Assembly: GCF_025426255.1 (NCBI RefSeq)
Contig: NZ_CP104861.1
Coordinates: 868,001 to 932,000, forward strand
Length of the DNA: 64,000 nucleotides
DNA from: Pseudomonas fragi
GTDB lineage: Bacteria > Pseudomonadota > Gammaproteobacteria > Pseudomonadales > Pseudomonadaceae
Reading direction: 5' to 3'
A model generated the notes under the pieces. It searched no databases. It worked only from the letters and a program-made list of their open reading frames with translations, and had not been told where the DNA came from. Shown piece after piece: positions 9,426 to 45,694 of the stretch. The position numbers were made by a program, and so were the translations under genes. Every line of letters begins with the position of its first letter. Position 1 is the stretch's first letter.

Positions 9426-9454
9426 AAAAAAAAGCCGCTATGATAGCGGCTTTT
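9426..9454 (-). terminator. Intrinsic terminator of the small secreted protein gene
   Basis: Stem AGCCGCTA / TAGCGGCT with a three-base loop; read on the minus strand it is followed by eight T. It lies between the stop at 9517 and the porin start, so it ends the upstream small gene and isolates the porin. Confidence 0.88.
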
Positions 9455-9516
9455 GAAACAGTCAGTCACATATGTGGCGTGCGACTGACTGGGTCGGGAA
9501 GTCTGCAGGCGTCTAA

Positions 9517-9741
9517 TCAGCTGTCTTTTGCTTCATCTGAAATACTGGTTTCAGCCTGTGTTTGTTGAGGCTTGGCGGCGTCTTGCTGGTGTGCTGTCAG
9601 CTCTGCCTGGTGCTGTTCAAAAGTAGCTGCGCGTGCCGCATTTTGTGCGACGAATGCAGGCGATTCTTCCGCCATGGCCAGGGGCGACAACAACAAAGAC
9701 GACAAAACGAAAACGCTAGCCATACCCATACTGCTGGACAT
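9517..9741 (-). CDS. Small secreted protein, function unknown
   Basis: A 74 aa protein with a clear signal peptide (MSSSMGMASVFVLSSLLLSP, likely cleavage after AMA) and a short, alanine- and glutamine-rich, charged mature part of about 45 residues that looks helical. I chose the ATG at 9741 because AAGG lies 8 bases upstream; an ATG at 9765 would add MHRKKVFE. The gene stands alone with its own terminator. Pseudomonas genomes often carry such small periplasmic proteins, but I do not recognise this one and give no function. Confidence 0.7.
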   Translation of the reverse strand: MSSSMGMASVFVLSSLLLSPLAMAEESPAFVAQNAARAATFEQHQAELTAHQQDAAKPQQTQAETSISDEAKDS

Positions 9742-9900
9742 TTCAAAGACCTTCTTGCGGTGCAAGTTCTGTTTGGTACGATCAAAATATAGCTATTGGG
9801 CGGGGCGAAAAAGAGCAGGTGAGTACAAGGACCTTTGCGTTTTAGGTAACAAATGCTTGGAGGTGCGAGCTAGAGCGATCACGATAATCTTGAGTTGTGA

Positions 9901-10023
9901 TGTACCGCTGAGGAGCGCCAGCGAGGCTGCGATCGGCTGCGCAGCAGTCGCAAATCTATGGGGTTCTGGGGTTTACGGCTGCCTGCAGTCGATCGCAGCC
10001 TTCGTTCCTCGGCAGCGGCTACA
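9901..10023. repeat. REP doublet (REPIN) 1
   Basis: Two inverted Pseudomonas REP units. The left arm reads TGTACCGCTGAGGAGCG with GAGGCTGCGATCG; the right arm is its partial inverse ending GGCAGCGGCTACA. The same cores recur at six other places in the window. It fills the gap between the sensor kinase stop and the small secreted protein gene. Confidence 0.85.
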
Positions 10024-10033
10024 GAGCTTCGCA

Positions 10034-11392
10034 TCAGATAGGTAGATACAACCCGAATGTATTGCGCCCTCCACCGCTGCGCACAAATACTTCGCCGCCA
10101 TGCATCTGCGCTATCGCCTTGACGATGGCCAGCCCCAGCCCGTGGTTGCCGCCGCTGTTGTGACGGGCGGCGTCCACCCGGTAGAAACGCTCGAATAACC
10201 GCGCCAAGTGCTCTGCGGCAATCGGCTGGCCAGGGTTGCTGATGCTGATCGTGACCCGGCCCGCGGTTTGCTCGATCAACACCTCGATCACCTGTCCGGC
10301 CTCGGTGTGCTGCACGGCGTTGCTCAGCAAGTTGATCAGCGCGCGGCGCAGGTGGGCTTTTTCGATGTTGACCTGGGCATCGCCGCTGACCCGAACGTCA
10401 ACCCGCGCATCTTCAAGGATGAATTCCAGATAATCCAGGGTCGTTGCCACTTCGTCCGCAAGGAAAGCGCGGGTCAGTTTGCTGGCCTTGCTGCCTTGAT
10501 CGGCGCTGGCCAGGAACAGCATGTCATTGATGATGCTGCGCAGCCGTTCCAGTTCTTCGAGGTTGGATTGCAATACTTCAAAGTAATGCTCGGCCGACCG
10601 CCCCCGGGTCAGTGCAACCTGGGTCTGGCCAATCAGGTTGGTCAGGGGCGAACGCAGTTCATGGGCCACGTCGGCATTGAATGATTCCAGCCGGGTATAG
10701 GCTTGCTCGACCCGGTCCAGGGTGGCGTTGAAGGCACTGACCAGTTGATCCAGTTCCGGTGCCAGCGGCGCAAGGTGCAAGCGCCCGGACAGGCGCGGCG
10801 GTGCCAGCTTTTGCGCTTCTTCAGACAGCTTGTCCAACGGTTTTAGGCCGATCCGCGCCACCCAATAGCCAAGCAGCGAGGCCAGCAGTACGCCAATCGT
10901 TGCCAGGCTGATCAGTGCGATCAGCAAGTGGTGCTGGGTCTGGCGAAAGGTCTGAGTATCGATGCCAATCAAAAAGCGCAGCGCCGGGCGCTGTTCCTTG
11001 GCCGGGATCTGGCTGATCAGCACCTTGAAGGGGTAGGCCTGGCCGGGCAGCCGCAAGTCTCTTACCCCGGTCGGGCCTTGGGCAAATTCGCGCACCGCCG
11101 CGTCGGGGTTGCCGTATTCATAGGTTGGGTCAGAACTGATAGTCCAGAAGCGGATGCGTTTGTCCTCTTCGCTGAGCAGCTTGAGCTTGGCGCTCATCTT
11201 GGCCCAGTGATCGAGATTGCCGTAACGATTGATTGATGATTCGAGCACGCTGTAACGCGCATCCAGCTCTGCTTCGGGCAGGCGCCCGATACTTTTTTCG
11301 ACCTGCTGGTAGAGCGCTCCGCCGATCAATACAAAGACCAGCAGGGCCACCAGGGCAAACATCGCACTCAAGCGCATGGCGATGGAGTTCAT
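10034..11392 (-). CDS. Heavy-metal-type sensor histidine kinase
   Basis: Inner-membrane kinase of the CusS/IrlS-like family, predicted partner of the regulator upstream. The 452 aa protein has a first transmembrane helix (ALVALLVFVLIGGALY), a periplasmic sensor of about 130 residues, a second helix near 165-185, HAMP, the H-box DVAHELRSPLTNLIGQ, and N, G1 and G2 boxes (NLLSNAVQH, GNHGLGLAIVKAI). The open frame runs further upstream to 11563, but the ATG at 11392 lies 13 bases after the regulator stop and matches the family start. The signal is unknown; family names referring to metals should not be taken as proof. Confidence 0.92.
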   Translation of the reverse strand: MNSIAMRLSAMFALVALLVFVLIGGALYQQVEKSIGRLPEAELDARYSVLESSINRYGNLDHWAKMSAKLKLLSEEDKRIRFWTISSDPTYEYGNPDAAVREFAQGPTGVRDLRLPGQAYPFKVLISQIPAKEQRPALRFLIGIDTQTFRQTQHHLLIALISLATIGVLLASLLGYWVARIGLKPLDKLSEEAQKLAPPRLSGRLHLAPLAPELDQLVSAFNATLDRVEQAYTRLESFNADVAHELRSPLTNLIGQTQVALTRGRSAEHYFEVLQSNLEELERLRSIINDMLFLASADQGSKASKLTRAFLADEVATTLDYLEFILEDARVDVRVSGDAQVNIEKAHLRRALINLLSNAVQHTEAGQVIEVLIEQTAGRVTISISNPGQPIAAEHLARLFERFYRVDAARHNSGGNHGLGLAIVKAIAQMHGGEVFVRSGGGRNTFGLYLPI

Positions 11393-26869: not shown

Positions 26870-27757
26870 ATGTCCTTTAAGCACTTTATCCAAATCACCA
26901 AACCGGGGATCATTTTCGGTAACGTGCTTTCTGTGGCAGGTGGGTTTTTCCTGGCCTCGAAGGGGCATTTCGATCTTGCCCTGTTCCTGGCCGCGGTAAT
27001 CGGCACCTCCTTGGTAGTCGCGTCCGGTTGTGTGTTCAACAACTGCATTGACCGCGATATCGACATCAAGATGGACCGCACCAAGAACCGCGTACTGGTT
27101 CAAGGCCTGATCTCCCTCAAGGTGGCGCTGATTTACGCCACCTTGCTGGGGGGCGCCGGCCTTTACTTGCTGTATCGCGTGGCCAACCCGCTGGCGGCTC
27201 TGTTCGCTGCGATCGGCTTCGTGATCTACGTTGGTCTGTACAGCCTGTACTTCAAGCGCAAGTCGGTTCACGGCACGCTGATTGGCAGTCTGTCGGGTGC
27301 GATGCCTCCGGTTATCGGCTACGTCGCAGTCAGCAACAGCTTCGACATGGCCGCACTGACCCTGCTGGTGATGTTCAGCCTGTGGCAGATGCCGCATTCC
27401 TACGCCATCGCGATCTTCCGCTTCAACGATTACCTGGCTGCATCGATTCCGGTGTTGCCAGTGAAGCGCGGGATCAAGGTTGCCAAGAAGCACATCCTGC
27501 TCTACATCCTCGCGTTCCTGATCGCGACCCTGATGCTCACCCTCGGCGGTTACGCCGGCATGAGCTACATGGCCGTGGCAGCAGCGATGGGCATGTACTG
27601 GCTGTACATGGCGTGGACCGGCTACAAGGCCGTCGACGACAAGGTCTGGGCACGCAAGCTGTTCGTGTTCTCGATCTTCACCATCACCGCCCTGAGCGTC
27701 ATGATGTCTCTGGATTTCAAAGCGCCTGCCGAGTTGCTGCTGACTTACGCACACTAA
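26870..27757 (+). CDS. cyoE: Protohaem IX farnesyltransferase (haem O synthase, CyoE)
   Basis: UbiA-family membrane prenyltransferase that converts haem B to haem O for the oxidase. The 295 aa protein has about nine helices, the substrate Asp-rich motif [18 protein letters not shown] and the second conserved loop [14 protein letters not shown]. It starts 11 bases after cyoD and closes the operon, which ends at a strong terminator. Confidence 0.97.
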
Positions 27758-27771
27758 GAAAGCCAGACTGA

Positions 27772-27807
27772 AAAACCCCGCCTTCGAGAGAAGCGCGGGG
27801 TTTTTTT
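27772..27807 (+). terminator. Intrinsic terminator after cyoABCDE
   Basis: Outer stem AAAACCCCGC / GCGGGGTTTT with an inner CTTC-GAGA-GAAG hairpin, followed by a T run, 14 bases after the cyoE stop. Confidence 0.93.
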
Positions 27808-28018
27808 ATGGCTGCGATTCAAGTCTGGATTTGGATAGCGCTGGCTTGGAAAGAAGATTTCACATGTGCGGATAATATTCTCTATTGGAGTTTTTTATGT
27901 GGCCCTTGCCCTTCAGTGCGTTAAGGAAAATCCTACATTACTAACTGCGTGCGAATGGTCAAATGCTCAGGCTGAATTCCACCAGGAAATTTTGTCTACA
28001 TTTAACCAGGAGCGCGTC

Positions 28019-28489
28019 ATGTCCAAGTTGTCGTTAAAGAAACTCGCTGTAGTAATGTCTCTCGTATGTTTGCCGGCAACCGCCAGCTTTGCAACAACCC
28101 TTTCTGTGGGCGTAGGCCAGGAAAAAACCTTCTCGCTGACTTGCAAGTCAGGCAACTTTGTCGGTGTTGCTCAAGGAAAGGTGGGGAATCATTTTCAGGC
28201 GGGTAGGTGGGTGCATCTTACAAGCTACAAAATCACCCGTCTTAACGGTCAGAAGGGCGGCAACAAGGCTAATGTGAATCTTTACGCTAGCCCAGCGCCG
28301 AACTTTATTCGCAATGAGCACAGGGCCCCCTCTAGGGACAGTATGATTCAGGACGGCAAGTGGCATAGTGTGGCTTTGACACGCAGTAACTTCGTGGTTG
28401 CCAGCAAAAAAGGCGAGCTAGTCGTCGAGTTTATATTCGATAAGTCAGGGACTGATCCACGTTGCCACACTAGCTCGGTCTACTTCTAA
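28019..28489 (+). CDS. Secreted protein of unknown function next to an ABC exporter
   Basis: A 156 aa precursor with a Sec signal peptide (KKLAVVMSLVCLPATASFA, likely cut before TTLSV) and a mature part of about 130 residues that looks rich in beta strands. The mature part has exactly two cysteines, one near its start (SLTCKSGN) and one near its end (DPRCHTSS), so one disulfide is possible. AGGAG lies 7 bases before the ATG; the longer frame from 27866 has no ribosome site. I do not recognise the family. It precedes, on the same strand and 187 bases away, a split MacB-like exporter with its own channel and adaptor, so it may be cargo or an accessory protein; this is inference. Confidence 0.75.
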   Translation: MSKLSLKKLAVVMSLVCLPATASFATTLSVGVGQEKTFSLTCKSGNFVGVAQGKVGNHFQAGRWVHLTSYKITRLNGQKGGNKANVNLYASPAPNFIRNEHRAPSRDSMIQDGKWHSVALTRSNFVVASKKGELVVEFIFDKSGTDPRCHTSSVYF

Positions 28490-28675
28490 GTAAGTAGTGC
28501 CTGCCTGCACTGATGTTTATAGTGTTGGGCTGTGTGCTCTTTCTTGTCAGTGCATCATCGGGAAGGAAGAGTGCACAGTATAGTGTGCTGGGTACGGTTT
28601 AAGTGCATGGCTTGTCACGATGTTTAAATGTTGTATTTCAGCAGTTAATGCCCTGTCTCTATTGCGCAAAGGTAT

Positions 28676-29374
28676 GTGGTTGTTATGCACGATTTAAACT
28701 TCATTTCAATGAGAGGCGTAAGTAAAAGTTACCGTCATGCTGGAAAGTTGAACCCGGTTATCAGTCAGGTCGATTTTCAGGTTGGGGTGGGGGAAACCTG
28801 TGCCATTATCGGCCCTTCGGGGGCCGGTAAAAGTACGCTGTTGAATATTGTAGGTCTGCTGGATGTTGCAGATGCGGGTGAGTACCTGTTTATGGGACGC
28901 TCGGTTGCAAACGCTCAAAATGATGAGTTGGCAGCCATTAGAAAAATGCAAATCGGCTTTGTCTTTCAGAATTTCAATCTGATCCCCCGTTTGACAGTTA
29001 TCGAGAATGTGGCATTGCCGCTTCGGTACCGCGGGATGGATCGAGCGCACTCCCTTGAACATGCAATGTGCATGTTGCAGAGGGTGGGTATGGCGCAGCG
29101 CGCCGGTTATAAACCCGCCGACCTGTCAGGTGGGCAAAAGCAGAGAGTGGCCATCGCGCGTGCTCTGGTAGGCGAGCCGTCCTTGATATTGGCCGATGAA
29201 CCGACAGGAAGTCTGGATAACCAGACAGCCAGTGAGATTCTGGAGCTGCTGCTGTCGATACAAAAAGAAAAGAACGTGACGTTATTGATTGTGACCCACG
29301 ACCAGGGTATTGCGCGGCTAATGCAGCGCCAGGTGGTAGTGCGCGGTGGTGTCGTTGTGGAACTCAATGCATGA
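28676..29374 (+). CDS. ABC transporter ATP-binding protein, MacB/LolD type
   Basis: ATPase subunit of 232 aa from the family that powers MacB- and LolCDE-like mechanotransmission exporters. Motifs are Walker A GPSGAGKST, Q-loop FQNFNLIP, signature LSGGQKQRVAIARAL, Walker B LILADEPTGSLD and the H-loop VTHD. The ATG at 28685 is an alternative start, because no ribosome site is well placed for either. The stop overlaps the permease ATG (ATGA). In MacB this domain is fused to the permease; here it is separate. Coding sequence looks AT-richer than the housekeeping genes around it. Confidence 0.92.
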   Translation: MVVMHDLNFISMRGVSKSYRHAGKLNPVISQVDFQVGVGETCAIIGPSGAGKSTLLNIVGLLDVADAGEYLFMGRSVANAQNDELAAIRKMQIGFVFQNFNLIPRLTVIENVALPLRYRGMDRAHSLEHAMCMLQRVGMAQRAGYKPADLSGGQKQRVAIARALVGEPSLILADEPTGSLDNQTASEILELLLSIQKEKNVTLLIVTHDQGIARLMQRQVVVRGGVVVELNA

Positions 29375-30576
29375 GTTTTTTAACCCGGTTGATAACCCCT
29401 GCGGTGACTCAGGTAGTTGAAGATGCCATCGACAGTTTTCGTACGATGGGCAAGCGCTCGGTATTGGCGTTGTTAGGCATTGTAATCGGCAGTGGTTCTA
29501 TTGTGGCGGTTATTAATGTTGGCCATAACACAAGCCAGGAGGCTGCGAAAATATTCCAGGGTATGGGGGTTGATACGCTGTTTGCCAAGCTGAATGATGA
29601 ACAGAGATTTAAAGATTCATTTCTCGGGATGGATGCCGCGAATATCCGCGGGTTGGATTTGCAGCATTTGATGGTTGCTCCCGTTTCGGAGGTGTCGGGC
29701 AAGGCCGGTTTCAATCGTCTTTATATTGATGTGAGAATTGTCGGGACGGAGCCGGCTTTGATTGAAGTACTAAAGCTGTCAATCAGTCGTGGGCGTTTTC
29801 TACATGAGTTTGATCGTGACGATAACGTCGTTGTGCTCGGTCACACCGTTGCGACTTCTTTGAGTAGCAACGGCCTCGGTATTCAAGTGGGTGAGTGGCT
29901 CAAGATCAATAACTATTTGTTCAAGGTTGTCGGCATTTTGCAACCCGCTATGGAATCAATGCTCAGTCCAGTCTTGACGAATCATTCACTATTTATGCCG
30001 CTTCAAGGTTTGGCTCGGGTAGACAGTGGTGCGGCTATTACTGATGTCATTATGCGAGTTGGCCCTGCACAAAAAATCGAGCTTGTCGTTCCACAAGTAA
30101 TGGAACGTTTGAGTGCTGCGTTTAAAACACGCACTGTCGAAATAGTAGTGGCGCAACAAATGATTGACGCCATGAGCCGTCAGAACAAAACCTTCCATTA
30201 TCTTTTGATAGCGCTGGGGATTATTACGTTGGTGGGGGGTGGCGTTGCCGTAATGAATGTCATGTACATGAATGTTTCTGAACGTCGTATTGAAATTGGT
30301 CTGCGGATGGCTATCGGCGCCCGTCGCCAGGATATACGCAATTTGTTTCTGGTCGAAGCGCTTGCGCTCAGTACGCTGGGTGCCGTGTTGGGAGCGGGCG
30401 TTGGTATTGCGCTGGCCTGGCTGTATGCCGTGATATCGGGGTGGGCATTTGAGTTGGCGATGCTGTCTATCCCTTTGGGCGTTTCGAGCACCTTACTGGT
30501 CGGTGTTTTCTTTGGCTTGAAACCGGCAATCGCGGCTTCGCGGCTTACCCCTGTAGAGGCTCTGCGTGATTACTAA
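29371..30576 (+). CDS. ABC transporter permease, MacB/FtsX type
   Basis: Membrane subunit of 401 aa. Layout is N-terminal helix (about 30-52, VLALLGIVIGSGSIVAVINV), a periplasmic MacB-like domain of about 220 residues, then the three-helix FtsX domain (about 270-400) with the conserved RRIEIGLRMAIGARRQDI coupling segment and LTPVEALRDY end. This is the transmembrane half of a MacB, here without its ATPase domain. It overlaps the ATPase gene by 4 bases and the channel gene by 11 bases, so the set is one operon. Confidence 0.92.
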   Translation: MSFLTRLITPAVTQVVEDAIDSFRTMGKRSVLALLGIVIGSGSIVAVINVGHNTSQEAAKIFQGMGVDTLFAKLNDEQRFKDSFLGMDAANIRGLDLQHLMVAPVSEVSGKAGFNRLYIDVRIVGTEPALIEVLKLSISRGRFLHEFDRDDNVVVLGHTVATSLSSNGLGIQVGEWLKINNYLFKVVGILQPAMESMLSPVLTNHSLFMPLQGLARVDSGAAITDVIMRVGPAQKIELVVPQVMERLSAAFKTRTVEIVVAQQMIDAMSRQNKTFHYLLIALGIITLVGGGVAVMNVMYMNVSERRIEIGLRMAIGARRQDIRNLFLVEALALSTLGAVLGAGVGIALAWLYAVISGWAFELAMLSIPLGVSSTLLVGVFFGLKPAIAASRLTPVEALRDY

Positions 30577-32047
30577 ACTAGTCGTTGCCACAAGCGCAGC
30601 GTGCTGTGTTTTGATCCTGTCGAAACAGCTGGCCGCAGCCCCGGCCCGAGTCGAAGCCAGCGTGCTGCACCACAGCGAGTTGCGCAGTGACTTGTTGAGC
30701 CAGCACGTGATCGATCTATCGTTGGCCGAAGCCGTGTCGCTGGGCTTGCGCCGCAACTACAACATTCGCAGCCTCAAGCTTCAACGCTTGCGGGAGAAGT
30801 TCGATCTGCTCGTGGCCGATGACCTGTTCAATCCCAAATTGAAGCTCAGTGGTACTCACAGGCTATCCAAGGGTAACGCCGACAGCAGTCGCACGACCGG
30901 CATTGCGCCCTCGGTGAGCCTGCTGGGTGAGTATGGCACCAACATTGATCTGAGCTGGAACCAGCAGCTCAATGCCACAAAAAATTCAGGTGACCTGAGC
31001 AGTAACGGTCTGGGGCTGACGGTGACTCAACCGTTACTCAGGGGGGCAGGCCAAGACGTCACGACGGCTCCCTTGCGCCTTGCTAAATTGACCGAGCAAG
31101 TCAATCAGTTGAATTTGAAAACCAGTGTGTCCCAAACCCTGTATGAAATCATCGCGGCCTATCGCACGCTGATGAAATCCCAGAATCAAATGGCGCTTGC
31201 CACGGATGCGCTTGAACGGACTGTTTCGTTGCTCAAGGTCAATAAGTTGCTGATTACTGCAGGGCGAGTGGCGGAGTTTGACGTTGTGCAGATCGAGGCG
31301 GATATCGCGACACAGGAGTTAGCGGTAGAAGAGGCGAAAAATCAGTTGGAGGCGAGCCGCCTAATGATGCTCAAGTTGCTGGCACTCGACCTGGCGACGC
31401 CTGTACGCGCCAGTGACGCCCTGCAAGTGACCCGGCTTGATATTGATCAGGCGACGGCATTGAAGGTGGCGCAGGCCAAGCAGCCGCAATATTTGGCGAC
31501 AATGCTGCAGAGCGAACAGACAGCAATCAACTTGTTGCTCGCGCAAGACAGGGCCCGTTGGGACTTGTCATTGGTGGCGGGTGTCACCCAACAGCGGGAC
31601 CAACACAGCATCAACGGCGCCAATCGGGCGTGGGACAGTTACACCGGTCTGAAGCTGGAGATCCCCATTGGTGATCTCGGCATCCGCCAAGGCAAGGTCA
31701 ATGCCCAGACTATGGTGGAACAGCAGAAGTTGCTTCAGGAAGAGGCTCGGATTGATTTGAAGCGGCAGATCACCGATGCGGTCAGAGGCTTGAACACCCT
31801 GTGGCGTCAGCTTGAAATCTCACAGCGGATTATCGAACTGTCCAGGCGCAAGCTGTCCATCGAGAACGACAAATTGAACGCTGGCCGATCCAGCAACTTT
31901 CAAATCATCAGTTATGAAGCCGACCTGCGTGCGGCCGAAGATGCGAACTTGAATGCGAAAATTTCATACCTGGATGCCAGGGCTCAACTGGATCTGCTGC
32001 TGGGTGTAATGCTGGAGAGCTGGGAGATTTCACTTGAAGGTTTTTGA
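30566..32047 (+). CDS. TolC-family outer membrane channel protein
   Basis: Outer-membrane efflux protein of 493 aa that would form the exit duct for the neighbouring exporter. It starts at a GTG inside the permease gene and has an N-terminal hydrophobic segment suitable as a signal peptide (VVATSAACCVLILSKQLAAA). Two long alpha-helical repeats of the family are evident from heptad-like regions near 190-280 and 390-475, with beta segments (GEYGTNIDLSWNQQL, GLTVTQPLLRGAGQD) that include the typical channel motif QPLLRG. Its last 14 bases overlap the adaptor frame. Confidence 0.9.
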   Translation: MITKLVVATSAACCVLILSKQLAAAPARVEASVLHHSELRSDLLSQHVIDLSLAEAVSLGLRRNYNIRSLKLQRLREKFDLLVADDLFNPKLKLSGTHRLSKGNADSSRTTGIAPSVSLLGEYGTNIDLSWNQQLNATKNSGDLSSNGLGLTVTQPLLRGAGQDVTTAPLRLAKLTEQVNQLNLKTSVSQTLYEIIAAYRTLMKSQNQMALATDALERTVSLLKVNKLLITAGRVAEFDVVQIEADIATQELAVEEAKNQLEASRLMMLKLLALDLATPVRASDALQVTRLDIDQATALKVAQAKQPQYLATMLQSEQTAINLLLAQDRARWDLSLVAGVTQQRDQHSINGANRAWDSYTGLKLEIPIGDLGIRQGKVNAQTMVEQQKLLQEEARIDLKRQITDAVRGLNTLWRQLEISQRIIELSRRKLSIENDKLNAGRSSNFQIISYEADLRAAEDANLNAKISYLDARAQLDLLLGVMLESWEISLEGF

Positions 32048-33301
32048 CCGGATCAAAGCCATGACAGGACGCTGGAAGTATCTTGCGGTGGGCGGGCTGG
32101 TGTTGGCCTTGGGGCTGATGTTGTACCTGCCTGCGGCCCCAGGCAACGATGTTTCCTGGGTCGCTGTCAGTAGCCATAAACTGGAGCATGAAATCGGCCT
32201 GGTCGGCAAAATAGAACCGATTGAAACCTCGATTATCACTGCACCTTTTGAAGGTTTAGTCCTGGCCAATGAGTTGAGCCCAGGCATGCAGGTCGAACAG
32301 GGGCAAGCCTTGTTGTCTCTTGATACGGCGTTGCTTGAAATCAAGCTGCGGGATGCCCTGGCCAACCAGTTGAAAATGCAGCAGACCGTTGAGATCTACC
32401 GTACCTGGGCAACCGACCCGCAAGTGCTGCAAGCGGAGCAGATGCTCAGAGTGGCCGAACTGTCCAAGCAGACGCTTGACCTGGAGTTTTCTCAAGTCGA
32501 GGCGCTGTATCAAAAAGGTATTGTTCCGCGCAATGAACTCGATGCCTTGAAGCAGCAGCGTTACCTGCAATCGCTTGAGCTGACGGCCGCCAAAGTGCAG
32601 CTCAAGAGTGTGTTGGCTGCCGGCAAGGGTGAGGCCAAAGCCATTGCCGATATGGAGTACCAGAATGCATCCATCGCTCATGAACAGTTAAACGCATTGT
32701 TGGAACTCAAGGTGCTCCATGCGCCGTTTTCGGGTGTTGTGCTGTCCCTTGGGGTGCCACAGTCGACAGGGGGGAAGTCGAGGCGATTCATGCCGGCGCT
32801 CTTTTGGCCAAAGGTCAACAATTGATCAAGCTGGCCAACATGAAAGGGCTCAAGATTGTCACTCAGGTGTCGGAGTCGGATGTGAACAAATTCGCCCTGA
32901 ACCAGAAAGTAGCAATATCCGGGGACGGATTTTCGGGGCGGCAGTTAAGCGGCTATGTGAGCGCTATCAGTCAGATGGCTGTTCAGGATGAGAACCCCGG
33001 CAGTGCTGCAAGATTCCCGATCACGATCACCGTGAATGCTCCCGAGAACGGTGACTTCAAGGACGTCAGGCTGGGCATGAGTGTGCATATGACGATCGTG
33101 ACGTACCGCAATGAAAATAGCTTCATCATTCCTCACGCTGCAGTTGAGCAGGCTGAGGACGGCATGTTTGTACATCACCGCGAGCGCTTTGACGCGCCAG
33201 TGGTACGGCGTGAAGTCACGATTGGCCAGTCGACAGCCAAAGGGGTTGAGGTGTTCGGGCTGGACTCTGGATTTGTCAGTGTAAAAGCCGACGCTCAGTA
33301 A
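32034..33301 (+). pseudogene. HlyD/MacA-type adaptor, interrupted by a frameshift in a G6 run
   Basis: Periplasmic adaptor for the exporter, read in two frames. The first part (32034-32825, TTG start after GGGAG, ATG alternative at 32061) gives a membrane anchor, one lipoyl half and a coiled-coil hairpin, then runs off-frame after VVLSLGVPQSTGG. The second part resumes as VEAIHAGALLAKGQQLIKL and covers the barrel and C-terminal domains to 33301. The frames join at the six G at 32769-32774; one extra G would restore a protein of 422 aa. It may be a true mutation, a phase-variable gene or a sequencing error. The rest of each half is well conserved. Confidence 0.85.
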
Positions 33302-33334
33302 ACGGTTCTCATCAGTTTTTGTGAGCGCTATAGA

Positions 33335-33366
33335 GCCTGTGGGAGCCGGGCTTGCCCGCGATGGCA
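33335..33366. repeat. Single REP unit of the CCTGTGGGAGC family
   Basis: GCCTGTGGGAGCCGGGCTTG and the following CCCGCGATGGCA match the widespread Pseudomonas short repeat that folds around GGGCTTGCCC. It differs from the other REP doublets in this window and follows the adaptor pseudogene by 34 bases. Confidence 0.8.
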
Positions 33367-33413
33367 CACCTGAGTCTGACTGATGCCTCGCGCCTTTGTT
33401 ATCCCGGCTAAAA

Positions 33414-43679: not shown

Positions 43680-44297
43680 GTGACTCTCAGCGTGTTGGCC
43701 GCTTTTTGGGCGGTGTCGTTTTTGTTCATCATCACACCCGGTGCAGATTGGGCTTACGCGATCTCTGCGGGCATGCGCGGGCGCTTGGTTACGCCTGCGG
43801 TGGCGGGCATGCTCTCCGGACATTTGCTGGCCACGTTGATTGTGGCCGCCGGTGTGGGCGGGCTGGTGGCACGCAATCCGATGATCCTTACCGGGCTGAC
43901 GGTTGCCGGAGCGGTGTATTTGCTCTGGTTGGGTGTGTGCATGCTCAGGGATCCCGCGACGCCTCAGTCCGGGCAGGGGCAGGTATCTGATTCATGGTCG
44001 CGCTGGGCGTGGAAGGGGTTGTGTGTCAGTGGCTTGAACCCCAAGGTTTTGTTGCTGTTTCTGGCCCTTTTACCGCAATTTACCGACCCGCTGTCGACCT
44101 GGCCGATACCGACGCAAATCATTGCCCTGGGTGCGTTGCATGCGGTCAGTTGTGCTGCGGTATATCTGATGGTCGGCTTTAGTGCCCAGGCCGTATTACA
44201 GACCCGGCCAAGTGCGGCGAAAAACGTCAGTCGGGTGTCTGGCGCGGTGATGGTCCTGATCGCGGTGGTGTTGCTGGCGGAGCAGGCCTACAGTTGA
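43680..44297 (+). CDS. LysE-family amino acid exporter
   Basis: Inner-membrane exporter of the LysE/RhtB family, 205 aa with about six helices. Signature regions are ITPGADWAYAISAGMRGR near the N-terminus and the second motif GLCVSGLNPKVLLLFLALLPQF. Start is a GTG at 43680, nine bases after AGAAGG. Its stop overlaps the start region of the next gene. Divergent Lrp gene suggests amino acid-dependent control; the substrate cannot be read. Confidence 0.88.
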   Translation: MTLSVLAAFWAVSFLFIITPGADWAYAISAGMRGRLVTPAVAGMLSGHLLATLIVAAGVGGLVARNPMILTGLTVAGAVYLLWLGVCMLRDPATPQSGQGQVSDSWSRWAWKGLCVSGLNPKVLLLFLALLPQFTDPLSTWPIPTQIIALGALHAVSCAAVYLMVGFSAQAVLQTRPSAAKNVSRVSGAVMVLIAVVLLAEQAYS

Positions 44298-44326
44298 GGC
44301 TCCCCCAGACTACCGAGGATGAAGCT

Positions 44327-44887
44327 GTGGCAACCACTGAAAGCGATCTGCACACAACGCCGCGGGCGGTGATTGATTTCTGGAAGCAGGCGGGGCCCAG
44401 GCACTGGTTCGCCAAGGATGAGACGTTCGACGATCTATTTCGCGAGACCTTCTACACAGCTCACTTCCAGGCCGCCAGACGCGAACTTGAGCACTGGATG
44501 GAGCAGCCCGAGGGCGCACTGGCGTTGCTGTTGCTGCTGGATCAGTACCCGCGAAATTCATTTCGCGGCACCGCGCATATGTTCGCTACGGACCCGCTGG
44601 CGCGCTTCTACGCCCGCCAGATGATTGCTGGTGGTATGGACAAGCAAGTCGATGCGGCCTTGCGCCTGTTTTGTTATTTGCCGTTTGAGCATTCGGAAAA
44701 CAGTGACGACCAGCAGCTGTCGCTGCAACTGCATCACGCCCTCGATCCGAAGGACTCAAAATGGGCAGAAGACCACGCTGAAATCATCCAGAGATTCGGA
44801 CGCTTTCCACATCGCAACGATGTTCTAGGACGCGAGACCACCGAACAGGAGCGCATGTTTTTGAATGAGGGTGGATTTGCGGGTTGA
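44327..44887 (+). CDS. DUF924-family protein
   Basis: A 186 aa soluble protein of the DUF924 family, an all-helical fold of unknown function that resembles a TPR-like scaffold. Motifs are PRAVIDFWKQAGPRHWFAKD, LLLLDQYPRNSFRGTAHMFA, FCYLPFEHSEN and RFGRFPHRNDVLGR. I chose the GTG at 44327, preceded by GAGG at 8 bases, rather than the TTG at 44294 that overlaps the LysE stop. It probably forms a short transcript with the exporter. No catalytic role is established for the family as far as I know. Confidence 0.85.
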   Translation: MATTESDLHTTPRAVIDFWKQAGPRHWFAKDETFDDLFRETFYTAHFQAARRELEHWMEQPEGALALLLLLDQYPRNSFRGTAHMFATDPLARFYARQMIAGGMDKQVDAALRLFCYLPFEHSENSDDQQLSLQLHHALDPKDSKWAEDHAEIIQRFGRFPHRNDVLGRETTEQERMFLNEGGFAG

Positions 44888-44974
44888 GTGGGCATCAGGT
44901 GCTGCGGCTGGGGAAAGGCTCTGCAAGCAGGCATAATCGGCGCCTGAACCCCCTCACCTGATTCGGAGTCACCC

Positions 44975-45364
44975 ATGAAGCCCCTCGCCCTGCTGACCTT
45001 GGCCCTGATCCTCACGGGTGGACTGTTCAGCACCGGTGCGGCTGCGGCAGGTGATGCGCAAGCGGGCGGCACACTGTTCACTAAAACCTGTGGTGGCTGC
45101 CACAGCATCGGGGAGAACGCCCGCAATGGCTTTGGCCCGCAACTCAACGGCGTGATCGGGCGGCTGGCCGGGGCGAGCGCTGGCTACCAGTACTCCGACG
45201 CCATGAAAAACTCTGGCGTGGTGTGGACCCGGGAAAAACTGGCGGCCTATATCGAGGCTCCGAAAAAAGTGGTGAGTGGCACGCGGATGATCTTCTGGGG
45301 GATCAGTGATCCCGAGAAAATCGACAACCTGCTGGCTTACATTGAGACGTTTCAGGGGCAGTGA
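44975..45364 (+). CDS. Class I cytochrome c, periplasmic
   Basis: Periplasmic electron carrier of 129 aa. A signal peptide (ALLTLALILTGGLFSTGAAA) is followed by the haem-binding CGGCH at about residue 39 and the sixth-ligand methionine in GTRMIFWG, with the YIETF C-terminal helix. It resembles the mitochondrial-type cytochromes c (GFGPQLNGVIGRLAG). The partner oxidase or dehydrogenase is not obvious. Its stop codon abuts the stop of the convergent gene. Confidence 0.93.
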   Translation: MKPLALLTLALILTGGLFSTGAAAAGDAQAGGTLFTKTCGGCHSIGENARNGFGPQLNGVIGRLAGASAGYQYSDAMKNSGVVWTREKLAAYIEAPKKVVSGTRMIFWGISDPEKIDNLLAYIETFQGQ

Positions 45365-45694
45365 TCACTGAACGGCCTTCAAGTAATCCTTGAGCGTCAG
45401 CAGTGCAGGGTGCATCTGTTCCAGGGTCTGCGCGTTTCTGACATCGCAGGACAGCTTTTGCAGCTCGCGGCCCATGGGTGTCTGTTCGCCGCCTAAAGCG
45501 TTCAGCGCCAGATCCAGACACTGGTCGACTTTATGCTGGATGGTATCGATATCGGCATTGCGCACTTCAAAGGCAAACACGTCGCGCTGATAGTCGTCCA
45601 TCACCGGATCGTCGCGCAAAATCGGGCTGCTGCCGTCCGTCTCATGCACCAGCTTGAGAGAGAAAAGGGCGACTGCCTCCAGCGTCAATTCCAT
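45365..45694 (-). CDS. Conserved hypothetical protein
   Basis: A 109 aa acidic soluble protein, mostly helical (VRNADIDTIQHKVDQCLDLA, QTLEQMHPALLTLKDYLKAV), without signal peptide or membrane segment. I do not recognise the family. It is convergent with cytochrome c: the two stop codons touch (TGATCA), so 3' ends must overlap. The ATG at 45694 is the only start that keeps the N-terminal helix. Confidence 0.7.
   Translation of the reverse strand: MELTLEAVALFSLKLVHETDGSSPILRDDPVMDDYQRDVFAFEVRNADIDTIQHKVDQCLDLALNALGGEQTPMGRELQKLSCDVRNAQTLEQMHPALLTLKDYLKAVQ

What the first reader, a model, noticed from the sequence alone, without database searches (positions are those of the whole stretch)
28019..33301. 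Candidate dedicated tripartite ABC export system with an adjacent unknown secreted protein
Seen: on one strand, a Sec-signal protein of unknown family, a lone MacB/LolD-type ATPase, a separate MacB/FtsX permease, a TolC-like channel and a MacA/HlyD-like adaptor. The last four genes overlap (4, 11 and 14 bases). Known: ordinary MacB fuses ATPase and permease and follows MacA. Here the parts are split, the order is reversed, and the channel is included, which suggests a self-contained exporter. The block also looks AT-richer than its flanks, hinting at transfer. Inferred: the secreted protein could be cargo or a folding or immunity partner.
Basis: partly seen in the sequence, partly recalled or inferred. 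Interest (0 to 1): 0.6.

Follow-up and report, generated by a model that had tools for sequence, protein, structure and literature searches.

The report
Pseudomonas exporter for small secreted proteins
A Pseudomonas gene cassette encodes a three-part pump that, judging by its relatives, probably pushes a small folded protein made by the neighbouring gene out of the cell; in this genome one pump gene looks broken by a frameshift.

Summary
The cassette is real: a Sec-signal 156-aa protein (S1), then a LolD-type ATPase, MacB-type permease, TolC-like channel and HlyD-like adaptor. One correction: the adaptor is not one open frame. Its halves lie in different frames, while 40 of 40 checkable relatives are intact; it is the only broken gene of 45 compared. 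Permeases of this family occur in 103 of 348 Pseudomonas genomes.

Partners differ by lineage. Of 45 loci examined, 14 have a divergent TetR gene; 27 of the other 31 lie near S1, PraB or an unrelated Sec-signal family, S2. S2 is predicted to have the aegerolysin/Cry34Ab1 fold (Z 13.5). Best reading: a MacB-superfamily exporter that moves Sec-delivered, folded small proteins across the outer membrane, as Aat does for dispersin. Cargo status is inferred from linkage alone. Against strict pairing, 17 of 24 S1 and 47 of 69 S2 places are not near such a permease, and most exporters lack S1. A new variant of a known kind, probably inactive here unless the frameshift is a sequence error.

The parts
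28019..28489 (+). S1: 156-aa secreted protein, probable cargo; signal peptide about 28019-28093 (by eye), conserved Cys42 and Cys149, mature part about 14.4 kDa, pI 10.0, predicted beta-sandwich
28676..29374 (+). ATPase of LolD/MacB type (GTG 28676 or ATG 28685); Walker A, Q-loop, LSGGQ signature and H-loop motifs found
29371..30576 (+). MacB-type permease without a fused ATPase (MacB_PCD and FtsX domains)
30566..32047 (+). TolC-like outer-membrane channel (two OEP stretches)
32034..32825 (+). HlyD/MacA-like adaptor, N-terminal part with a hydrophobic anchor segment, in its own frame; similarity to the relative G244 stops near 32777
32771..33301 (+). HlyD/MacA-like adaptor, C-terminal part, in another frame: the gene is frameshifted in this assembly; intact copies exist in relatives
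27776..27807 (+). GC-rich inverted repeat with T-run after the UbiA-family gene (cyoE by recall), probable terminator upstream of the cassette
   Evidence: read from the sequence; the scan listed this repeat only on the - strand

Best explanation
The cassette encodes a MacB-superfamily (type VII ABC) tripartite exporter plus its likely protein cargo. Inferred path: (1) S1 is sent to the periplasm by Sec and its signal peptide removed; (2) it folds there into a small beta-sandwich, probably with a disulfide between Cys42 and Cys149; (3) ATPase and permease, working as a split MacB, with the HlyD-like adaptor and the TolC-like channel, eject the folded protein across the outer membrane by mechanotransmission. 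Related loci carry other small secreted proteins near the exporter, so it looks like a reusable secretion unit. In the window genome the adaptor frame is broken, so the machine is probably inactive there unless the break is a sequence error. Shown: gene content, families, conservation, frameshift in this assembly, linkage counts, predicted folds. Inferred: cargo identity, disulfide, route, inactivity.
For: Component families. Parts together on one strand in 43 of 45 loci, in the order ATPase-permease-channel-adaptor where gene calls show it. S1 beside the exporter in six genomes, with two tandem copies in G107; the S1 label needs at least 2 changes on the permease tree. At genome level S1 and the permease co-occur more than expected (15 of 21 S1 genomes, 103 of 348 overall, Fisher p 5e-5, phylogeny not corrected). 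Other Sec-signal partners: S2-type in 19 of 45 loci and PraB in 5 of 5 loci examined. Enrichment 23/31 vs 0/14 TetR loci vs 7/36 and 24/144 controls (Fisher tests). Both conserved Cys in 13 of 13 aligned S1 rows outside the four signal-less homologues, which have neither; in S2 19 of 19. S2 fold. Precedents: MacAB-TolC exports Sec-delivered STII, Aat exports dispersin (passages of PMC5985334, PMC7943197, PMC8277102).
Against: No direct secretion data. 17 of 24 S1 places and 47 of 69 S2 places are not within 10 kb of a split permease; 6 and 30 of these are in genomes with no such permease. Three genomes with a signal-bearing S1 (G037, G079, G292) are among them. Most exporters lack S1, and 14 of 45 loci have a TetR-type regulator and no Sec-type ORF within 3 kb upstream, so part of the family likely pumps something else. 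S1 and S2 show no profile similarity; the S1 fold gave only generic matches. S1 stop and ATPase start are 186 bases apart. The linkage count includes loci chosen for S1, 3 of its 23 hits look unrelated, and loci are not independent.
Confidence: 0.55

Rival explanations
1. An ordinary efflux pump of the MacB superfamily for a small molecule or antimicrobial; S1 is an incidental neighbour in a variable chromosomal spot.
For: 14 of 45 examined exporters have a divergent TetR-type regulator (Pfam-confirmed in one; others by similarity to it) and no Sec-type ORF within 3 kb upstream, a layout typical of drug efflux pumps (recalled). The site after cyoE holds other genes in 10 of 10 further relatives examined. 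S1 and S2 often live away from the exporter.
Against: In the other exporter loci small Sec-type proteins are enriched, and 27 of 31 have S1, an S2-type protein or PraB nearby. Of the four cassettes found at the cyoE site, two have an intact S1, one a truncated S1, and one a Sec-signal protein only weakly similar to S1 (hhalign probability 19%, E 0.0012).
Confidence: 0.24
2. S1 is a periplasmic helper, immunity or ligand-binding partner of the exporter rather than its cargo, as with the periplasmic proteins of the split-MacB operon PA4063-PA4066 of P. aeruginosa.
For: PA4063-PA4066 joins a split MacB with periplasmic proteins and is proposed to export cobalt-pyochelin (passages of PMC11481552). 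S1 homologues without a signal peptide exist (L015, L017, L018, L020), so the family is not solely a secreted cargo.
Against: The PA4063-PA4066 operon as described has no adaptor or channel gene. S1 is among the least conserved of the compared genes (67% identity to G244; 33 of 42 non-cassette genes are 93.6% or more) and is duplicated in tandem in G107, which fits an exported effector better, though not uniquely.
Confidence: 0.17
3. The window copy is a decaying relic of the cassette, no longer functional in this strain. This can hold together with the best explanation for the intact relatives.
For: Adaptor frameshift found only in the window among 41 loci where both halves could be placed, no other broken gene among 45, a truncated S1 in G256, higher dN in the cassette genes (0.08-0.25) than in most compared genes, no second match to the adaptor's C-terminal half in the genome (distant adaptors would be missed).
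Against: S1, ATPase, permease and channel are intact; a single break in a G-rich stretch may be a sequencing error or a strain-level or phase-variable change.
Confidence: 0.5

Closest known systems
Aat / CexPABC exporters of dispersin (Aap) and CexE in E. coli
   Same: Separate ATPase and permease, adaptor and TolC-like channel in one operon; small Sec-delivered cargo, its gene within 400 bp upstream in 18.4% of aat loci (PMC7943197, passages).
   Different: No CN_hydrolase (AatD-type) gene inside the window, nearest about 43 kb downstream of the cassette; permease matches MacB better than LolC/LolE models, whereas AatP is described as nearer to LolC/LolE; gene order and cargo differ; no N-terminal glycine expected on S1.
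MacAB-TolC (E. coli) and PvdRT-OpmQ (Pseudomonas)
   Same: MacB_PCD/FtsX permease, adaptor and TolC-type channel; STII is a Sec-delivered disulfide-bonded cargo (PMC5985334, passages).
   Different: There ATPase and permease are fused; the own genome also has a MacB-like match in a 656-aa frame elsewhere (28% identity).
PA4063-PA4066 of P. aeruginosa
   Same: Split MacB ATPase/permease in an operon with periplasmic proteins (PMC11481552, passages).
   Different: Zur-regulated, no adaptor or channel gene in the operon, proposed small-molecule (cobalt-pyochelin) export.
Darobactin exporter DarBCD
   Same: The ATPase scores 208 bits to the DarD model; separate MacB-type parts (recalled).
   Different: Cut-off is 375 bits; no precursor-like gene recognised in the S1-ATPase gap.
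Aegerolysins / Cry34Ab1 / RahU (for the S2 partner family of sister loci, not for S1)
   Same: Predicted fold: Z 13.5, 2.0 A over 107 residues to Cry34Ab1; 9.9 to RahU; 9.5 to ostreolysin A.
   Different: S2 has a Sec-type signal and two invariant Cys; no aegerolysin model among the Pfam matches of 19 members; no known pore-forming partner was recognised beside it, by reading only.

Membership tests
MacB superfamily (type VII ABC) transporter | Permease with MacB_PCD periplasmic domain and FtsX C-terminal domain | tested here: met
   PF12704 E 4.9e-24, PF02687 E 1.7e-14, both over cut-off; MacB chains best in PDB, E 4.3e-31
MacB superfamily (type VII ABC) transporter | LolD/MacB-type ATPase with nucleotide-binding motifs | tested here: met
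   PF00005 E 5e-31; best PDB match the MacB-like 5xu1 ATPase; Walker A, signature, Q- and H-loop found by pattern; my Walker B pattern did not match, the sequence there reads ILADE
MacB equivalog (fused MacB) | ATPase and permease in one polypeptide | tested here: not met
   Separate ORFs; both below the NF007826 cut-off
Tripartite exporter | Adaptor and TolC-like channel encoded with the transporter | tested here: met
   PF02321 and PF13437; adaptor split over two frames in this genome, one frame in 40 of 40 checkable relatives, 4 more not checkable
Aat/Cex lipoprotein secretion system | AatD-type acyltransferase | tested here: inconclusive
   None in the window, nearest CN_hydrolase about 43 kb away, 7 in the genome; aatD is also unlinked in a quarter of aat loci
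Aat/Cex lipoprotein secretion system | N-terminal glycine on the mature cargo | tested here: not met
   Cleavage read by eye as SFA/TTL; no cleavage predictor was available
Aat/Cex lipoprotein secretion system | Exporter-dependent appearance of the cargo outside the cell | not testable with these tools
   Needs secretome work
Darobactin exporter (DarD) | ATPase above equivalog cut-off | tested here: not met
   208 of 375 bits
Aegerolysin superfamily (S2 of sister loci) | Aegerolysin fold | tested here: met
   Predicted model pLDDT 89.6; Z 13.5 to 4jox, next row 10.3, an actinoporin; Foldseek E 6.4e-5 to ostreolysin A, though with low TM-scores of 0.31-0.36
Aegerolysin superfamily (S2 of sister loci) | Sequence match to an aegerolysin family model | tested here: not met
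   None among Pfam matches at E <= 1 for 19 members
Aegerolysin superfamily (S1 of the window) | Aegerolysin fold | tested here: inconclusive
   Only generic beta-sandwich matches, best Z 8.0

The most novel reading that the evidence does not exclude
Pseudomonas carries a previously unrecognised family of plug-in tripartite exporters whose job, outside the TetR-linked branch, is to secrete small, disulfide-bonded beta-sandwich proteins after Sec export, with cargo swapped by lineage (S1, aegerolysin-fold S2, PraB). This would supply an outer-membrane exit route for bacterial aegerolysin-type proteins.
Probability: 0.38. Interest if true: 0.75.

Novelty: new variant of a known kind. Interest (0 to 1): 0.5.

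Why it matters
In the review passages read, MacB-type export of folded proteins rests on few cases (STII, dispersin, CexE). A family of permeases in 103 of 348 sampled Pseudomonas genomes, many with unrelated small protein partners, would suggest that this route is more general and would let cargo recognition be studied by comparison. For the aegerolysin-fold branch it would suggest how Gram-negative bacteria release such membrane-binding proteins.

Tried and rejected
Rejected or led nowhere: a RiPP or bacteriocin peptide in the S1-ATPase gap (only short unremarkable ORFs). Darobactin-type exporter (below cut-off). Defence system: PADLOC gave 31 ATPase-type matches to the ATPase (best mad3, E 1.3e-29) and one permease match (E 6.9e-8, a CARF-LolE model), read as shared ATPase and permease domains; none for S1, channel or N-terminal adaptor part. 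Phage origin (PHROGs: no S1 hit, one permease hit at E 9.5e-6). S1 as a Laminin-G/ConA lectin (E 0.02-0.08, below cut-off, 1 of 17 members). S1 in PDB by sequence (E 0.72 and worse). S1 related to S2 (hhalign probability 0.3%). S1 specific fold: best Z 8.0, a level common by chance. Neighbours of solo S1 copies as clues: the gene beside it in L030 reads as a DapF-like epimerase (recalled), no link seen. S1 beyond Pseudomonas: the own genome was the only hit among 59 genomes of the family sample and 321 of the class sample; genome contigs gave one locus, P. gregormendelii. Assembly error as cause of the frameshift is not excluded at this one place; 44 of 45 compared genes are unbroken.

Print: the nine searches (open-licence PMC only) listed no paper whose title or shown abstract names this cassette or S1. 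Passages only were seen of PMC5985334, PMC7943197, PMC8277102, PMC11481552, PMC9505663 and PMC4542665; all other papers only as search listings.

Weak points of my counts: the signal-peptide rule is a home-made hydropathy rule. Three of the 23 positive non-TetR loci (L084, L085, L086) look unrelated to cargo; six of the 31 were the window itself or loci fetched for S1; the other 25 loci, with those three counted as negatives, give 15 of 25 (Fisher p 1.5e-5 against control 2). I examined neighbourhoods of 45 of 108 permease matches, chosen from across the identity range and not at random, plus L119-L121 for PraB. That ATPase and permease are separate was seen only in loci examined. Alignment A1 holds 17 of the 24 S1 places; left out were the truncated G256 copy, the disrupted G115 copy and five near-copies of the solo set (G334, G079, G070, G141, G169). 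The S2 search used one query, so 69 places is a lower bound. No promoter claim is made (2 sites found, 4.0 expected).
Full report
What is there. The window lies in a Pseudomonas-type genome (G000:C1:868001-932000; a named relative of its S1 is P. gregormendelii). After a UbiA-family gene (cyoE by recall; Pfam) and a terminator-like hairpin come five + strand genes: S1 (28019-28489), an ATPase (28676-29374), a permease (29371-30576), a TolC-like channel (30566-32047) and a HlyD-like adaptor (32034-33301). Pfam and NCBIfam place the last four among MacB-type tripartite exporter parts; MacB chains are the best PDB matches of the permease, and a MacB-like chain that of the ATPase. S1 matches no family above cut-off.

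A correction. The adaptor is not one reading frame. Its N-terminal and C-terminal parts are in different frames, with the switch near 32771-32777 in a G-rich stretch. In a survey of 45 exporter loci the two adaptor halves share one frame in 40 of the 40 relatives where both could be placed; the window alone differs; in 4 relatives one or both halves were not found. Of 60 genes called in syntenic stretches of G244, 45 have a match of 60% or better in the window and only the adaptor is broken or partial. So the assembly is not generally poor here, although a single error cannot be excluded. The C-terminal half has no second match in the own genome.

Divergence and composition. GC falls to 47.9% at 28-29 kb; other 1-kb bins range from 51.8 to 62.9% outside 28-33 kb. 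Against G244, S1 is 67% identical, the exporter genes 76-85%, while 33 of 42 non-cassette genes are 93.6% or more. Nine of those 42 are below 90%, among them genes at 43.8-45.7 kb as divergent as the cassette, so high divergence is not unique to it. dN is 0.25 for S1 and 0.08-0.14 for the exporter genes; dS is 0.51-0.77 (S1 1.2), against 0.01-1.54 elsewhere. Fast evolution and exchange are both possible. The place after cyoE is variable: window, G244, G256 and G344 hold the cassette, ten other relatives examined hold other genes.

Relatives of S1. 21 of 348 genus genomes have S1 in 24 places. Seven places, in six genomes, lie within 10 kb of a split permease, directly upstream of the ATPase: window, G244, G107 (two tandem copies), G256 (truncated), G221/P. 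gregormendelii and G283. Seventeen places do not: nine in one conserved solo context, three further signal-bearing copies (L022, L024, L040), four without signal peptide, and one disrupted (G115, seen only over its short locus). At genome level 15 of 21 S1 genomes hold a split permease somewhere, against 103 of 348 overall. In G344 the slot before the ATPase holds a 248-aa Sec-signal protein with weak S1 similarity (hhalign E 0.0012, probability 19%) and two cysteines placed alike. Of the 17 aligned S1 rows, the 13 outside the signal-less group all have both conserved cysteines and the 4 signal-less rows have neither.

Relatives of the exporter. 108 permease matches with E of 5.4e-48 or better fall in 103 of 348 genomes; the next matches (E 5e-38 and weaker, 26-31% identity) are read as fused MacB. 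In 43 of 45 loci the parts lie on one strand within 5.2 kb of the permease (in two of these only the N-terminal adaptor half was matched); L091 and L092 lack parts. A permease tree splits 22 rows, mostly with S2-type and helical S3 partners (100/100), from 23 rows with S1, PraB or TetR neighbours; the 14 TetR loci form one group (82/90) and the S1 label needs at least two changes. The TetR label was confirmed by Pfam in one locus. PraB (NF041562, 173.6 bits) lies about 0.6 kb downstream of the adaptor in 5 of 5 loci examined.

Small secreted partners. 27 of 31 non-TetR loci have S1 (6), an S2-type protein (19) or PraB (2) nearby; the S2 copy in L097 looks disrupted. With a home-made signal-peptide rule, 23 of 31 have a 100-260 aa Sec-type ORF within 3 kb upstream, against 0 of 14 TetR loci, 7 of 36 genes elsewhere in the same loci and 24 of 144 genes in other stretches. 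Counting three doubtful hits as negatives and leaving out the window and loci fetched for S1 gives 15 of 25 (p 1.5e-5 against the second control). Loci are related, so p values are only a guide. Against exclusivity, S2 occurs in 69 places in 58 of 348 genomes, and only 22 places lie within 10 kb of a split permease; 30 are in genomes with none.

Folds. The S1 model (pLDDT 80.7, 77 of 156 residues at 90 or more) is a beta-sandwich with only generic matches. The S2 model (pLDDT 89.6) has the aegerolysin/actinoporin fold: Cry34Ab1 Z 13.5 (2.0 A over 107 residues), RahU 9.9, ostreolysin A 9.5; Foldseek agrees by E-value (6.4e-5) but with low TM-scores. All 19 aligned S2 rows have two invariant cysteines, mature masses of about 12-14 kDa and pI 9.0-9.9; exporter-linked S1 are 13.6-15.0 kDa with pI 8.6-10.0 except P. 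gregormendelii (6.9); aligned signal-bearing solo S1 have pI 7.2-9.7 (mature ends set by alignment column). S1 and S2 share no detectable sequence relationship. A shared fold shows no function.

Mechanism. MacAB-TolC takes Sec-delivered, disulfide-bonded STII from the periplasm, and Aat/Cex exporters do so for dispersin and CexE (passages read). The architecture here (split MacB, adaptor, channel, Sec-signal cargo-like gene) fits the same two-step route. It is not shown to be an Aat system: no acyltransferase gene lies in the window, no N-terminal glycine is expected on S1, and the permease is closer to MacB. A split MacB in Pseudomonas was described for PA4063-PA4066, with a different proposed role (passages).

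Conclusion. I rate cargo export in intact relatives at 0.55, and the family-wide small-protein exporter reading at 0.38.

Noticed in passing
L098:6236-6679, and L087, L089, L090, L093-L096, L099-L107 near clade A exporters: S2: Sec-signal proteins of about 140-160 aa with predicted aegerolysin/Cry34Ab1 fold but no Pfam aegerolysin match; in the main group the mature form would begin with Gly-Pro (by eye).
   Followed up: yes
L090, L095, L098, L100, L102, L093 between S2 and the ATPase or beside S2: S3: proteins without an evident signal peptide, often in several copies and duplicated together with S2; the two representatives tested had no Pfam or NCBIfam match above cut-off. Possible chaperone or immunity partner.
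   Followed up: partly
L084, L085, L119, L120, L121: PraB, linked in print to alkane use (PMC4542665, passage), sits downstream of the split exporter in 5 of 5 loci; in L084 and L085 an OmpP1-like gene (recalled) follows.
   Followed up: partly
L041:8649-9044 and 9432-10820: A signal-less S1 homologue lies beside a gene that reads like a DUF2235-type hydrolase (label recalled, not tested), as found among type VI effectors.
   Followed up: no
L076:4543-5289: 248-aa Sec-signal protein with a charged helical-looking stretch and a weakly S1-like C-terminal part in the slot before the ATPase of G344.
   Followed up: partly
window 27757-33400 and the same place in L124-L133: The chromosomal place after cyoE holds different genes in different Pseudomonas, a variable spot.
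   Followed up: partly
L028 (G256) and L097 (G080): Partner genes in decay: S1 of G256 is truncated while its exporter genes remain open; S2 of G080 is split over two frames.
   Followed up: partly
window 43800-45694: A second stretch that diverges strongly from G244 (66-86% identity, dS up to 1.54); not examined further.
   Followed up: no
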